Shown here in pieces: positions 6,235 to 11,084 of a stretch of DNA of 14,472 nucleotides. Under the pieces are notes generated by a model, which did not search any database, was not told the origin of the DNA, and was given only the letters and a program-made list of their open reading frames with translations. The position numbers and the translations under genes are program-made. Origin of the DNA: J061 sp003695725 [NCBI: Candidatus Schekmanbacteria bacterium] (lineage in GTDB: Bacteria > Schekmanbacteria > GWA2-38-11). Positions within the stretch are counted from its first letter, which is position 1; each line of letters begins with the position of its first letter. The stretch spans positions 1 through 14,472 of the forward strand of contig RFHX01000144.1 of NCBI GenBank assembly GCA_003695725.1. Reading direction: 5' to 3'.

Positions 6235-7365
6235 TTAACTCTTGAGTAGTTTCCCATTTGCAATTATTGTCTCTTCTTCACTTCCATAAAGTAGCTTTAA
6301 AGTGGGATTGAATAGAACAAAATCCTGATGAAAATTAGTTCTAACTTCTCCTCCAAATGATTTATTGTCTCCTAATGCGAGGTGAATTGTTCCTAAAATT
6401 TTTTCTGATTCAAGAATATTGTCGGGCTTGGTAGCTTTGGGGTTTGTGCCGATGCCAAGTTCTGCAATGTTTGAAGATTTGCGGTCAAGTTCGATCTGTT
6501 CACGAAGAAAATCTGCATAGTCATCAATGCCTTGAATTAGAAAGAGTTTTCCACTTTTAATCTCAAATTTGAGAGGTTTCTTGAATTTTGAAGTGGGACC
6601 CCATTCAGCAACAAATAAGCCTTCAGCGCTATTTTCAACTGGAGCAATGAATGCTTCTCCTGCAGGGAGATTGCCAAAAGCGCCTTTTCTTGTAAGAATT
6701 CCTGTATCTGCTATTCCGGAGCGTCCTTCAATTCCTATTTTTAAATTAGTGCCATTTGATGCAGTTATTACGGCTGTTTTAGCTCTGCTCAATTTTTTTG
6801 CCAAGTTTTCTGTCAATTGCCTCATTTTCTTGTGATTGACATTGAGCGGACCTTCAAACATCGATTTATCGAAGAGAGGCATACTTGCATATCTGCCTCC
6901 TGCGATTCTTGTATGAAGGTCGCGAAATTTTGTGTGGCTCGTTGAAAAATTGGAAAGAGCAATGATTACATCTACGCACTCCCTCTTGTGCTTTTTGATT
7001 ATTTTTTCGGCTTCAATTTCTTCTTTCTTCGTTGACTGCTTTGTAATGAGTTTTTCAAAAATCCCTTTGTCTCTCAAATCTGCAAATGCTCTTTTTCCAA
7101 ATGCCTCCTGCCAAATCAATTCCGGAGGCTCCATCCCGTGTTTTTCTAAAGATTCATATTGCAGAAAAGTAGTGTCATTTCTTTTTGACAAGTAATCAAA
7201 GATTTCTTCTGCAATCAGTGGAAGTTCGCTTCTCCTTTTTCTATCAGATTCGGTAATTGTTTCGTCCTCTGATATATCATCGCAGAAAATCAAAACTCTT
7301 TCATTTCTTTTAATGCCGAGATTTTCCTCGATTAATTTTTTTATTGCTCGTTCTGTAATAATCAT
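6235..7365 (-). CDS. Aminopeptidase, M29 family (thermophilic metallopeptidase type)
   Basis: This is a 376-residue cytoplasmic metallo-aminopeptidase of the AmpS/aminopeptidase T family, which removes N-terminal residues with a two-metal centre. The expected metal ligands are in order: Glu237 in NLPAGEAF, Glu302 in NIAELGIG, His328 in TIHLALGD, and His346 with Asp348 in NFHQD. The N-terminal half is the less conserved substrate-chamber domain. It is the first gene of the minus operon and faces the RiPP-like cassette divergently. The ATG at 7365 has only a weak GAAAG upstream. Substrate range cannot be read from the sequence. The link with the genes downstream is not obvious and may just be shared transcription. 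Confidence 0.9.
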   Translation of the reverse strand: MIITERAIKKLIEENLGIKRNERVLIFCDDISEDETITESDRKRRSELPLIAEEIFDYLSKRNDTTFLQYESLEKHGMEPPELIWQEAFGKRAFADLRDKGIFEKLITKQSTKKEEIEAEKIIKKHKRECVDVIIALSNFSTSHTKFRDLHTRIAGGRYASMPLFDKSMFEGPLNVNHKKMRQLTENLAKKLSRAKTAVITASNGTNLKIGIEGRSGIADTGILTRKGAFGNLPAGEAFIAPVENSAEGLFVAEWGPTSKFKKPLKFEIKSGKLFLIQGIDDYADFLREQIELDRKSSNIAELGIGTNPKATKPDNILESEKILGTIHLALGDNKSFGGEVRTNFHQDFVLFNPTLKLLYGSEEETIIANGKLLKS

Positions 7366-7642: not shown

Positions 7643-7927
7643 ATGATAGATGAAAAGTCGATACCATCGAAAAATCCGTCAATACTTTGCACTGAACTTG
7701 ATGAAGAAGCAGTTTTGCTTGACCTAAAAACGAAGTGTTATTTTGGATTGAATGAAGTTGCCCTTTTTATTTGGAAACTTGCAGACGGGAAAAGGAATGT
7801 GTCAGACATAGTAGATGAAATATGCAAAAATTTTGATGTCGAGCCGTCAACGGCATTGAATAGCGTAAAAGGATTTCTAAAGAAACTCAACGACAACAAT
7901 CTTGTCTTTATTGATGCTTCCAGTTAA
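7643..7927 (+). CDS. PqqD-family peptide-binding (RRE) protein
   Basis: This 94-residue protein has the winged-helix fold of the RiPP recognition element. PqqD-like proteins bind the leader of a precursor peptide and present it to a radical SAM or other modifying enzyme. Family marks are clear: DEEAVLLDLKTKCYFGLNEV at about 20-39, FIWKLADGK at 42-50, the helix VSDIVDEICKNFDV at 53-66, and a final helix-turn with FLKKLNDNNLV at 78-88. The ATG at 7643 is the first possible start because TGA lies in frame two codons upstream; AGGG at 7632-7635 serves as ribosome binding site. It is the first gene of a four-gene set with an HprK-like kinase, a radical SAM protein and a McjB-like protease, the same role that B1 proteins have in split lasso peptide clusters. 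The peptide it binds is not evident here. Confidence 0.88.
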   Translation: MIDEKSIPSKNPSILCTELDEEAVLLDLKTKCYFGLNEVALFIWKLADGKRNVSDIVDEICKNFDVEPSTALNSVKGFLKKLNDNNLVFIDASS

Positions 7928-7982
7928 TAAATTCTTGCCGGGAATGTTCTGTTTTTCTTTTTTGCAGAGAGTTCATTTTTAA

Positions 7983-8975
7983 ATGTTTTACAAATATTAT
8001 TCAATTTTTGGAGTCAATGTAAGAATAGAAGCTGAGACCGAAGCGATAATTAGAATAGCTGATAAGTGTATCGGATATTTCGAAATTCAAGAAGACGATG
8101 GCAAGTCTGATATTTCGTTCAAAATACTTTTTCCTTCAAGAGACTTAATCGAAGAAAGAAAAAAAGCAATAGAGAGCAAGTATTATCTCTTTTCCTTTGA
8201 TAAATTGACAGGATATAGAATAGGGGAAAAACTTATTGTGACTGATGGGGTATCGACTGCCGAGTGTGAAACATCCAAAGGCATTGTAACAATGTTTCTC
8301 GATAAAGGCATACTTCGGCAGGAAAGGTTTTTTGCTTTTGTCTTTTTTTATTTGATACTAATGGAGATGTTGAGATATCGAGGCTTCTATTATGTCCATT
8401 CTTCCTGTATATCGATAGATGGAAAAGCTCTTATTATTCCCGGTGATACAGGCGCAGGAAAAACGACTCTTTGCATTACACTATTGAGGGAGGGGTATAA
8501 ATATCTCTCAGATGACGGAGTTTTATTGAGAAGAGAGGGGGATACTGTTAGAACCTATGCTCTGCCGGGGGAATTCCATATAGACCCATCAATATCGAAG
8601 AGGTTTAAAGAGCTTGAAGATGTAAAATATGGAGAAAAATATGGGGAAGGACCAAAAAGGGCTTTTAGTGCCGATAAATTTTATCCGGGACAGTTTATTC
8701 ATTCTGCTGAGCAGAGATTTATAATTTATCCTGAAATCAAAAATCAACGGGCTTCCAGATTATGCAGGATTTCGCGCGCGAAAGCCCTTGCACTCTTTAT
8801 TCCCCATAGCCTCCTTGTTATGATGGATAGCGATATTGCAGCTGCCCATCTTGATGTTTTAAAAAGAGCTGTTGAAATTTCTGAATGTTTCCGATTAGAA
8901 AGCGGGCAAGACCTCCTTGACAATCCATCAAATGTTGTGAAAATGATTAAGAAAGAATTGATTGGAGCAGATTGA
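7983..8975 (+). CDS. HPr kinase-like P-loop kinase
   Basis: This 330-residue protein has a C-terminal P-loop kinase domain like HPr kinase/phosphorylase. It shows a histidine in YVHSS at 137-141, a Walker A loop GDTGAGKTT at 154-162, and the acidic pair SDD at 176-178, all in the order found in HprK. LPGEFHIDP at 194-202 is typical of HprK-related proteins in peptide-modification loci. The N-terminal 110 residues are not recognised. True HprK phosphorylates a serine of HPr; relatives in lasso clusters phosphorylate a precursor peptide. Here the substrate is unknown. The ATG follows pqqD by 55 nt and is the first start, as TAA precedes it directly; its ribosome binding site (AGAGAG) is weak and distant. 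The stop overlaps the radical SAM ATG (TGATG), so translation is coupled. Confidence 0.8.
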   Translation: MFYKYYSIFGVNVRIEAETEAIIRIADKCIGYFEIQEDDGKSDISFKILFPSRDLIEERKKAIESKYYLFSFDKLTGYRIGEKLIVTDGVSTAECETSKGIVTMFLDKGILRQERFFAFVFFYLILMEMLRYRGFYYVHSSCISIDGKALIIPGDTGAGKTTLCITLLREGYKYLSDDGVLLRREGDTVRTYALPGEFHIDPSISKRFKELEDVKYGEKYGEGPKRAFSADKFYPGQFIHSAEQRFIIYPEIKNQRASRLCRISRAKALALFIPHSLLVMMDSDIAAAHLDVLKRAVEISECFRLESGQDLLDNPSNVVKMIKKELIGAD

Positions 8976-9985
8976 TGGCTGGAGACATAGGTTTTTTGAC
9001 AGAATTAGGCATAGAATTGACTAACAGATGCAACTTTGTTTGTAAACATTGCCTTCGAGATGAGAACCTGCCAAGAAAAAATATTCCATTCAGGGTAGTC
9101 AAAAAGATTCTCAAAGAAGCAAAAACATATGGAATAAAACATATTGGTTTTACAGGAGGTGAGCCGACTCTTCATCCTAAATTTGATGAAATCTTGGGAG
9201 AAGTCGTAAAAGGCGGTTTTACATACCACTGCGTAACCAATGCATGGAATTTCTTGGAGATGCTTCCTGTTTTTGAAAAGCATGGACTTTCATCTTTAAA
9301 AGGGCTTTCATTTAGCCTCGATAGTCCGCGTGAGGAGGTGCATGATTATCTTAGGAAGAAGGGCTCTTATAAAAGGATAATGCAGGCAGTTAGTGTTTGC
9401 TTTATGAAAAAAATACCCTTTAATCTTCAAATGACAGTTTGTACGAAGAATAAAGACCAGCTTGAAGAGATGGCTTTGCTTGCTTCGAAACTTCAGGCTG
9501 AAAAGTTGTTTTTTGCTTTTATTCAGCCGACTCCGGGCAATGTGGAGGAAGGATTAGTCCCAACTCCAGTTGAGCAATCGAGATTGGCAAGGGAAATAAC
9601 ACGACTTGCAGGTATTTTTTCTATTGGCGTTTTTCTTTCACCCGGCTTTGATATTCCTGAATTGATGTTTCAATGCAGAGCCCTAAATATGACATCTTTA
9701 ACCATTGATTTTATGGGAAATCTTGTCTTTTGCTGCCAATTGTCAGGTTATGCAGGAAGCAATTCTAAAGCAGATATAATAGCAAACCTTGCAGATACAT
9801 CCCTTTTCGATGCCCACAGAATGTTAATAGATAAAATAGCCAAGTTTCAGAAGGATAGGGTTTCAAGAATAGAAAAAAAGAATCTTGGCGATTTGGATAG
9901 ATTCCCCTGTTTCTATTGTGCACGCTATTTTGGAAAGGTAGATTGGCTGCGCAATTATAAAGGAAATGCCTGGAATAAAGAATGA
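8975..9985 (+). CDS. Radical SAM protein with shortened SPASM-type C-terminus
   Basis: This is a 336-residue radical S-adenosylmethionine enzyme. The [4Fe-4S] site is CNFVCKHC (C19, C23, C26) and the SAM-contact motif GGEP is at 61-64. The C-terminus has C234-x13-G248-x4-C253, which fits the first SPASM motif; C254 and a CFYC pair at 312-315 follow. This suggests an auxiliary cluster, with fewer cysteines than a full SPASM domain, so perhaps a twitch-like form. Such enzymes modify peptides presented by PqqD-like proteins. I chose ATG at 8975 because GGAG at 8964-8967 is ideally spaced and the start overlaps the kinase stop; a TTG one codon upstream (8972) is less likely. The downstream gene overlaps its 3' end by 20 nt. 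The reaction and substrate are not known. Confidence 0.88.
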   Translation: MAGDIGFLTELGIELTNRCNFVCKHCLRDENLPRKNIPFRVVKKILKEAKTYGIKHIGFTGGEPTLHPKFDEILGEVVKGGFTYHCVTNAWNFLEMLPVFEKHGLSSLKGLSFSLDSPREEVHDYLRKKGSYKRIMQAVSVCFMKKIPFNLQMTVCTKNKDQLEEMALLASKLQAEKLFFAFIQPTPGNVEEGLVPTPVEQSRLAREITRLAGIFSIGVFLSPGFDIPELMFQCRALNMTSLTIDFMGNLVFCCQLSGYAGSNSKADIIANLADTSLFDAHRMLIDKIAKFQKDRVSRIEKKNLGDLDRFPCFYCARYFGKVDWLRNYKGNAWNKE

Positions 9986-10454
9986 GAAGACTCCCAATCG
10001 GATTGTAAGAAGAATTACGGAATTCGTTATCTATTCGAAAATATTTCTTCTTGCAACTATATTGCCTCTTCTTCTTAAAGTGTTAAGCCTTCCATCGGTA
10101 ATGAAAATCTTGACACCTTCTAAGAATAGAAGGCATTGGAGACAATGGAAAGTAGATATTATTGTAAAAGGGACAGATAAAATTCTTGGTATAGGATTTT
10201 TTATTTATCATCCTACCTGTCTAAAAAAGTCCCTTATTCTTTATCATTTTTTGAGAAAGGAAGGTATGGATGTGGCAATTCACTTTGGAGTAAGAAAAAG
10301 AAACGGCACTCTCGATGGACACAGTTGGCTTACGAAAAAGGGGAAAAGGGTGTATGACAATCTTGAAAGTGTAGATGACTTTTTTGTTACCTATTCATAT
10401 CCATCTGATGAATCCTTTGATAAAGCTTCAATCCTTGGCGCGAATAAGAATTAA
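9966..10454 (+). CDS. McjB / lasso peptide biosynthesis B2-like cysteine protease
   Basis: This 162-residue protein has the bacterial transglutaminase-like fold used by lasso B2 proteases to cut the leader off a precursor peptide. The triad fits: Cys85 in HPTCLKKSL, His119 in DGHSWL and Asp131 in VYDN, with HFGVRKRNG between. The N-terminal segment at about 21-49 is hydrophobic (KIFLLATILPLLLKVL), as in many B2 proteins, and may anchor it to the membrane. The ATG overlaps the radical SAM gene by 20 nt; AAGGA lies only 1-2 nt before it, so coupling is likely. Its 3' end overlaps the convergent thiamine pyrophosphokinase gene by 27 nt. No lasso cyclase lies nearby, so the product need not be a lasso peptide. 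Family call is strong; substrate is unknown. Confidence 0.85.
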   Translation: MPGIKNEKTPNRIVRRITEFVIYSKIFLLATILPLLLKVLSLPSVMKILTPSKNRRHWRQWKVDIIVKGTDKILGIGFFIYHPTCLKKSLILYHFLRKEGMDVAIHFGVRKRNGTLDGHSWLTKKGKRVYDNLESVDDFFVTYSYPSDESFDKASILGANKN

Positions 10455-11084
10455 TATTCCTGATTTTATGCTAATTGAAACTTTTCTTCCAACAGCTTCA
10501 TTGCTGATGCCATAAGGCCTTCCGATTTCCATTATTCCGTCATCGAGAGGATATTTGAGCCCTTCCGTCTTTATTCCGGTTACCATTTCACTCATTGGAA
10601 GAAGAGAGATTATTTCTCCTACTTCTGATTCAAAATCACAGTGTGAGGTTATCAAAGTTATGGTATTGTTTTCATCAACGATACTTGCTTTTATGCCTTT
10701 TTTATGGGCTTTGAGCAGAAGATGGATATTTGCCAACATATGGTCGATGCGGCTTCCGGTGCATGCTAAAAAGACTGCTTCAGTTACTTTAAGGGAAATG
10801 GCAAGGTCAAGGGCAAGTTCAGTATCAGATTTGTCCTTATCAGGGCTGTGTCTGATTATTTGGCTTTTATTGAGAATTTCTTTGTTCAGTAAATGATTGT
10901 CTGCGGAGTCAAAGTCGCCAATGATATAATCTGGAATTGTTTCTGCTTCGATGCAGTATTTCAGTCCGCCGTCAGCACAAATCAATATTACATCAGAGCC
11001 AATATAATTCTTGATTGAGGAAATATCCTTCAGAGCACCTGCTGAAATAATCAGAGCTTTTCTTTTTTTAGAGTCCTTCATCAT
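10428..11084 (-). CDS. thiN: Thiamine pyrophosphokinase
   Basis: This enzyme transfers pyrophosphate from ATP to thiamine, making the cofactor thiamine diphosphate in one step. It has 218 residues, the usual length. Motifs seen are ADGGLKY at 37-43, DYIIGDFDS at 52-60, DKDKSDTELAL at 82-92 and TGSRIDHMLAN at 109-119, the metal and nucleotide sites of the family. The C-terminal beta-sandwich binds thiamine and includes ISLLPMSE. The start MM at 11084 overlaps the end of the penicillin-binding protein gene by 17 nt; the second ATG (11081) is also possible. A GAGAG site lies upstream. It is co-transcribed after the PBP gene. Thiamine is therefore likely salvaged, but no thiamine riboswitch is visible here. 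Confidence 0.94.
   Translation of the reverse strand: MMKDSKKRKALIISAGALKDISSIKNYIGSDVILICADGGLKYCIEAETIPDYIIGDFDSADNHLLNKEILNKSQIIRHSPDKDKSDTELALDLAISLKVTEAVFLACTGSRIDHMLANIHLLLKAHKKGIKASIVDENNTITLITSHCDFESEVGEIISLLPMSEMVTGIKTEGLKYPLDDGIMEIGRPYGISNEAVGRKVSISIKSGILILIRAKD

What the first reader, a model, noticed from the sequence alone, without database searches (positions are those of the whole stretch)
7643..10454. Four-gene PqqD / HprK-like kinase / radical SAM / McjB-like protease cassette, possibly an undescribed peptide-modification system
Seen: four co-directional genes with overlaps or short gaps (55 nt, TGATG, 20 nt overlap) carrying the motifs of an RRE protein, a P-loop kinase, a radical SAM enzyme with auxiliary cysteines and a transglutaminase-fold protease. 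Known: PqqD and B2 proteases work with precursor peptides in lasso and other RiPP pathways, HprK-related kinases can tailor such peptides, and PqqD-family proteins with HprK-related kinases co-occur in poorly understood loci. Inferred: kinase and radical SAM joined with a leader protease, without a lasso cyclase, would make a phosphorylated and radically modified product of an unknown class.
Basis: partly seen in the sequence, partly recalled or inferred. Interest (0 to 1): 0.75.

Follow-up and report, generated by a model that had tools for sequence, protein, structure and literature searches.

The report
Peptide-modifying cassette with unlinked precursor peptides
Four neighbouring genes look like a small assembly line that phosphorylates, radically modifies and cuts a short peptide; likely peptide genes were found elsewhere in related genomes, beside genes for large secreted lipoproteins.

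Summary
Window 7643-10454 encodes a discrete RRE (PqqD), an HprK-like kinase, a radical SAM enzyme and a lasso-B2-type peptidase, without lasso cyclase. The same four-gene order is in all 4 genomes offered for the order, with differing flanks. This radical SAM subfamily was met in 17 genomes; all have PqqD, 16 a B2 gene.

Candidate precursors were found. In five relatives a 48-61 aa ORF lies inside the cassette. A profile of four of them led to unlinked homologues in the window's order (G001, three; G002, one) and another phylum. Of 15 peptides, 14 have a Thr 15 residues after the leader's F/Y, 15 lack Cys beyond it, 10 have S/T three residues after it. This is the register of linear polyphosphorylated peptides (LPP, Popov 2026). 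No precursor was found in the window's own genome, of which 29% was read as ORFs.

Best reading: a RiPP system like LPP and phosphorylated lasso pathways, with a radical SAM enzyme instead of the cyclase and B2 as peptidase. In the order, precursors lie directly upstream of large secreted lipoprotein genes. Phosphorylation, radical chemistry and cleavage are inferred. Novelty: new variant of a known kind.

The parts
7643..7927 (+). discrete RRE (PqqD/B1-like), 94 aa; N37 and S74 lie at the LppB N33 and D70 positions
   Evidence: PF05402 2.6e-19; profile A5 matches TbiB1 5v1u (5.5e-21) and PqqD-family chains 9x90_B and 9x8z_B; position count
7983..8975 (+). HprK-like kinase, 330 aa, with an N-terminal domain of unknown role
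   Evidence: TIGR04352 6.5e-12, below cut-off; H-K-D-D motif; model pLDDT 89.6, Foldseek matches PEP carboxykinases and HprK
8975..9985 (+). radical SAM enzyme with C-terminal auxiliary cysteines, 336 aa (alternative start TTG 8972)
   Evidence: PF04055 3.9e-24; model pLDDT 89.6, Foldseek hits include SuiB, viperins, SkfB and PqqE
9966..10454 (+). B2-type leader peptidase (transglutaminase fold), 162 aa; C85 and H119 invariant in 9 sequences, with an acidic residue 12-15 positions after the His
   Evidence: NF033537 46.6 bits, cut-off 33; alignment of 9

Best explanation
The four genes mature a short ribosomal peptide encoded elsewhere in the genome. The PqqD protein (RRE) grips the leader at an FxEPxL motif and presents it to its partners. 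The HprK-like kinase phosphorylates a Ser/Thr shortly after the conserved leader Thr. The radical SAM enzyme installs a second change that does not use Cys. The B2 peptidase cuts just after that Thr, releasing a core of about 13-14 residues in this order (for example LFTSTANVGGGTFF in G002, or one residue less). In the window's order each precursor locus lies directly upstream of a gene for a lipoprotein of about 1,050 residues, so the finished peptide may work at the cell surface with it. Shown: the genes, their conserved order, precursor homologues and their register. Inferred: every chemical step, the cut site, the surface role. For the window's own genome the precursor is predicted, not found.
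For: Order conserved in 4 genomes. Candidate precursor ORFs inside cassettes: G463 radical SAM-B2-A-kinase-PqqD; G192 B2-A-kinase-radical SAM; G181 kinase-B2-A-radical SAM-PqqD-MFS-like; G043 directly before the kinase; G350 between B2 and radical SAM. Profile A6 matched homologues in G002 (2.8e-4), G001 (two), G386, G387, G308, G023, G320, G350, G464; a third G001 copy was read beside the first. Of 15 peptides 14 have T at motif position 16, 15 have no Cys after it, 10 have S/T at T+3. The LPP consensus YxxPxVLxHQxIxFETxxS has the same spacing and LppK phosphorylates that Ser. Each of the five f22 genomes has a single PqqD match, so their FxEP peptides have no other evident RRE. Asp RREs go with Tyr leaders in 3 of 3 genomes and non-Asp RREs with Phe in 9 of 10; that Ser should go with Phe in the order was noted before its peptides were found. 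The leader motif was found at the N-terminus of 0 of 11 neighbouring lipoproteins.
Against: No precursor was found in the window's genome: best whole-genome profile match E 0.112, without the motif, and none in 809,061 of 2,771,721 bases read as ORFs. The unlinked peptides are tied to the cassette by leader similarity, not position; G001 and G002 have 4 and 5 PqqD matches. For the order and f22 the E-values run from 0.0003 to 0.34, overlapping those of two control genomes (0.125, 0.774), whose matches however lie in long frames. The peptides were gathered by leader motif or profile, so the motif itself is partly built in. G464 breaks the aromatic rule (Ser RRE, Tyr leader). In G463 the radical SAM gene changes frame between CxxxCxxC and TGGEP, in G464 only its first part was seen, and in G308 B2 is in two frames. 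The kinase is below every family cut-off. Cores differ between phyla, so one chemistry is not assured.
Confidence: 0.73

Rival explanations
1. The cassette makes a peptide-derived small cofactor, as PQQ and mycofactocin pathways do (recalled): RRE, radical SAM and protease excise a modified, here phosphorylated, fragment.
For: The cassette stands among housekeeping genes without transporter or immunity gene (window ORFs read by eye) and is kept in 4 genomes of the order. The radical SAM profile matches PqqE (1.5e-17).
Against: G001 has three precursors with varied cores, beside secreted lipoprotein genes. The leader is of lasso/LPP type. G181 has an MFS-like gene in the cluster (27.2 bits, below the 33.4 cut-off).
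Confidence: 0.1
2. The system modifies the large secreted lipoproteins themselves, and the short peptides are only adaptors or regulators.
For: Lipoprotein genes (signal-like N-terminus ending in Cys, judged by eye) sit beside the precursor in 3 of 3 loci of the order and in G386, G023, G043 and G320; PD40 beta-propeller proteins lie just before B2 in G023, G043 and G188.
Against: The leader motif occurs in 1 of 11 such proteins, and there in mid-protein. Lipoproteins of different phyla are not clearly homologous (hhalign 72% over the N-terminus only, 15%, 0.6%).
Confidence: 0.07
3. It is a decayed lasso-peptide cluster that lost its cyclase and has no peptide product.
For: RRE, kinase and B2 are those of phosphorylated lasso pathways. 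Genes are broken in three relatives: radical SAM in G463 and G464, B2 in G308.
Against: In the order all four genes are open and 39-75% identical to the window's, the radical SAM most conserved; candidate precursors recur as open frames. The breaks may also be assembly errors.
Confidence: 0.06

Closest known systems
Linear polyphosphorylated peptides (LPP), Paenibacillus alginolyticus lpp cluster (PMC13381572; abstract, sections 6, 7, 10, 12 and passages read)
   Same: Discrete RRE, HprK-like kinase, no cyclase, leader YxxPxV...T with the same spacing, Ser/Thr three after the Thr in 10 of 15 peptides; an NTP_transf_5 gene follows B2 in G023 and G390
   Different: LPPs use an SpI-like peptidase, not B2; 'radical SAM' and 'rSAM' have 0 occurrences in that paper; it states LPPs are restricted to Bacillota; the window has no NTP transferase or transporter by eye, and the precursors of its order are unlinked
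Phosphorylated lasso peptides: paeninodin and pseudomycoidin (PMC9266682, passages), Bsf (PMC10368454, abstract and passages)
   Same: B1 (PqqD), B2 and HprK-like kinase with the H-K-D-D motif; [Y/W]xxPx leader; BsfK acts on core residue 3
   Different: No macrolactam cyclase; a radical SAM enzyme instead
SynChlorMet cassette (ScmC, ScmD, ScmE, ScmF: names, description recalled)
   Same: PqqD, kinase-like and radical SAM proteins together; ScmD and ScmF are the best NCBIfam matches of the PqqD and the radical SAM
   Different: All scores far below cut-offs; one radical SAM gene rather than two; a B2 peptidase

Membership tests
LPP | discrete RRE plus HprK-like kinase, no macrolactam cyclase in the cluster | tested here: met
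   Asn-synthase-family matches of G000-G003 all lie on other contigs
LPP | SpI-like leader peptidase | tested here: not met
   the fourth gene is a B2 peptidase
LPP | NTP transferase and MsbA-like transporter in the core cluster | tested here: not met
   none among the window's ORFs as read by eye; Pfam was run on 7 of them
LPP | precursor with YxxPxV and T-x-x-S register | tested here: inconclusive
   spacing met by precursors of the same order, with F for Y; no precursor found in the window's genome
lasso peptide pathway | B1 RRE and B2 peptidase | tested here: met
   B2 above the NF033537 cut-off; RRE profile matches TbiB1 and TfuB1
lasso peptide pathway | macrolactam cyclase (Asn-synthase-like C protein) | tested here: not met
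   no PF00733 match on the cassette contigs of G000-G003
SynChlorMet cassette | scores above the cut-offs for ScmC, ScmD, ScmF | tested here: not met
   19.4 of 125, 58.2 of 100, 80.5 of 400 bits
sactipeptide or ranthipeptide | Cys in the core for thioethers | tested here: inconclusive
   no Cys after position 16 in 15 of 15 precursors of relatives; the window's own precursor is not known
peptide-modifying radical SAM enzyme | CxxxCxxC and auxiliary cysteines | tested here: met
   29 invariant columns include the three SAM-cluster Cys and C235, C254, C255, C313, C316; the clusters themselves are not testable

The most novel reading that the evidence does not exclude
A RiPP class in little-known bacterial lineages in which a linear core is both phosphorylated and modified by a radical SAM enzyme, and in which one central cassette serves several scattered precursor genes, each encoded with a partner lipoprotein of about 1,000 residues, to build or tune a cell-surface apparatus.
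Probability: 0.35. Interest if true: 0.85.

Novelty: new variant of a known kind. Interest (0 to 1): 0.7.

Why it matters
It joins two tailoring chemistries, HprK-type phosphorylation and radical SAM, on one lasso/LPP-type leader without a cyclase, and gives concrete precursor sequences to test. The pairing of an RRE residue with the leader aromatic (Asp with Tyr, Ser with Phe) is a ready test of how RREs choose peptides. The lipoprotein neighbours are a first lead on function, which for LPPs and paeninodins is stated to be unknown (PMC13381572, section 12).

Tried and rejected
Short ORFs of the four cassette regions of the order, compared with each other: at E 1e-6 or better only PqqD, reads antisense to or inside it, one housekeeping-region gene and its antisense; no peptide gene (one search did this more widely but its output was cut). 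Plasmid records: no match. The single genome-contig scan gave two loci, an Elusimicrobia and a Chloroflexi MAG, with a distant radical SAM gene and none of the other three. Phylum searches around G043, G188, G023, G192 and G350 offered 3, 3, 9, 82 and 8 genomes, the first two the same three. Lipoprotein homology between phyla: weak. No NCBIfam or Pfam match for the G043 and G181 precursors. B2 profile against PDB sequences: none at 0.1. I first suspected the large lipoproteins of G043 and G188 as substrates and dropped this when short precursor ORFs appeared. Paper searches: SynChlorMet 0 papers; HprK + PqqD + radical SAM + peptide 0; HPr kinase + radical SAM + precursor peptide 1, a remark on lasso clusters; radical SAM + lasso peptide + kinase + RiPP recognition element 6, of which 5 are listed, none describing this set by title or abstract start.

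Full report
Observation. The window is contig C144 of a 2,771,721-base, 374-contig genome. Its four co-directional genes are as described. They lie between an M29-like peptidase gene (6235-7365, minus) and thiamin pyrophosphokinase (10428-11084, minus). No window ORF appears among the precursor-profile matches at E up to 20.

Conservation. The radical SAM gene was sought in 60 and then 386 genomes: 13 of 386 match, at E 3.2e-91 or better, under a threshold of 1e-35. Phylum searches gave 3 of 3, 5 of 9, 2 of 82 and 1 of 8 at 1e-50. In all 17 genomes carry it: G000-G003 (the order, as the search named kinship), G023, G308, G386, G387, G390 (family f22), G043, G188, G320, G181, G192, G463, G312, G350. 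In G463 the reading frame changes between CxxxCxxC and TGGEP, so that gene is broken or misassembled. The kinase lies in the same cluster in 16 of 17; G350's contig of 3.5 kb holds none. PqqD is in 17 of 17 (16 of 16; G463). B2 is in 16 of 17: 11 in the radical SAM cluster, and 5 (f22) at a second locus with PqqD, where G386 has the two on two contig ends and G308 has B2 in two frames. G181's B2 was missed by the six-frame search and found as an ORF. G312 has an S24-like peptidase gene instead (PF00717 4.2e-8). The uninterrupted order PqqD-kinase-radical SAM-B2 is in the 4 genomes of the order; all four genes share one cluster in 7 of 17 (these, G043, G181, G463).

Absence of a cyclase. All 16 genomes searched have Asn-synthase-family genes, but none on the cassette contigs of G000-G003. 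In G386 one lies about 2.2 kb from B2 on the other strand and starts MCGICG, as amidotransferases do (meaning of the motif recalled); in G188 one lies about 10 kb from B2 on the same contig.

Enzymes. The kinase model (pLDDT 89.6) resembles PEP carboxykinases and HprK. In 12 aligned kinases H139, G159, K160, G171 and D177 are invariant. A strict pattern with the window's spacing matched 11 of 14 kinases; G043, G188 and G181 have one residue more between His and Lys. The radical SAM model (pLDDT 89.6) matches SuiB, viperin-like enzymes, SkfB and PqqE. C235, C254, C313 and C316 recall the one-cluster 'twitch' pattern of BtrN (recalled). B2 keeps Cys85 and His119 in 9 of 9; reading them as catalytic by analogy with McjB is recalled.

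Precursors. Short ORFs with an [FY]xxPx[LV] leader lie in the cassettes of G043 and G181, G192 and G463 and G350. A profile of the first four (A6) was run on 24 genomes: the 17 above and 7 meant as controls. Full-motif short ORFs were then read in G002, G001, G386, G387, G308, G023, G320, G350 and also in G464, a genus-mate of G463 chosen as a control, which proved to hold kinase, B2 and PqqD but only a first part of the radical SAM gene. Of the other six controls G005, G010, G019 and G465 gave no match and G007 and G012 gave matches in frames of 400-557 aa. So 12 of the 17 genomes have a candidate; none was found in G000, G003, G390, G188 and G312 by this profile (G312 has a different candidate). 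G001 holds three copies, two in tandem.

Register. In A10 (15 peptides; counts) position 16, counting the aromatic as 1, is T in 14; no Cys follows in 15; S/T stands at T+3 in 10 (4 of 4 peptides of the order, 4 of 4 of f22, G043, G320). The peptides were gathered by motif, similarity or profile, so the first part of the motif is partly a product of selection. In LPPs cleavage follows the T and the kinase acts on the Ser three later; in Bsf the matching position is -2 and core residue 3 is used. The two registers differ by one residue, so cut site and phosphosite are predicted only to within one position. A plain motif scan found 4 ORFs in 809,061 bases of G000 contigs, none like a precursor, and in 311,905 bases of cassette loci 2 others besides 5 precursors; the G181 peptide fails that pattern, having V at position 16.

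Pairing rule. LppB D70 hydrogen-bonds the leader Tyr. The printed alignment of PDB chain 9x8z_B puts the matching Asn and Asp at chain positions 51 and 88, an offset of 18 from N33 and D70; that this chain is LppB is inferred from this fit. The window has N37 and S74 there. Asp RREs go with Tyr leaders in 3 of 3 genomes (G043, G320, G181); Ser or Val RREs with Phe in 9 of 10, the exception being G464 (one-sided Fisher 0.014, with related genomes, so only indicative; for G001 and G002 the cognate RRE is assumed). A Phe leader is predicted for the window's genome.

Surroundings of precursors. In G001 (two loci) and G002 the precursor has directly downstream a lipoprotein of 1,042-1,071 aa; the G001 proteins are 45 and 43% identical to that of G002; no Pfam match. 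G023 and G386 have one of 907-971 aa downstream; G387 has a frame upstream that is cut by the contig end; G043 and G320 have a lipoprotein upstream; G308 has none adjacent. 'Lipoprotein' is judged by eye from a signal-like N-terminus ending in Cys. This is an association, not proof of partnership.

Known systems. LPPs (PMC13381572: abstract, sections 6, 7, 10, 12 and passages) and phosphorylated lasso peptides (PMC9266682 passages; PMC10368454 abstract and passages) supply the mechanism. Also seen: one passage of PMC4289311 and passages of PMC12710340; other papers only as search listings. A set of radical SAM, B2 and kinase without cyclase was not met in the searches, which cover open-licence PMC papers only.

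Noticed in passing
L032 8722-12785 (G000:C237, window's own genome): A second cluster: PqqD, radical SAM, HprK-like kinase, S24-like peptidase, NTP_transf_5, then ABC transporter genes (by eye) on the other strand; LPP-like with a radical SAM added.
   Followed up: partly
L053 12873-13049 (G312): 58-aa ORF with an AYAAPRVL leader and a C-terminal GCGCGCGCG repeat beside a cluster of two radical SAM genes, kinase and S24-like peptidase; perhaps another precursor.
   Followed up: no
L035 8159-8326 (G002:C36): 55-aa ORF MKYEKPELKSLN... near another PqqD and two radical SAM matches; perhaps precursor of a different system.
   Followed up: no
L031 84-1603 (G000:C355): PqqD, a radical SAM-like gene and a 69-aa basic ORF in a row on a 4-kb contig.
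   Followed up: no
L064 5882-8676 (G023) and L069 2808-5659 (G390): PqqD, a PD40-type lipoprotein, B2 and NTP_transf_5 in a tight row; PD40 proteins also lie just before B2 in G043 and G188 (PD40 by Pfam in G023, G043, G188).
   Followed up: partly
L081 2800-3400 (G463), L118 9073-9495 (G464), L065 7700-8100 (G308): Broken genes: radical SAM in two frames (G463), radical SAM cut short (G464), B2 in two frames (G308).
   Followed up: partly
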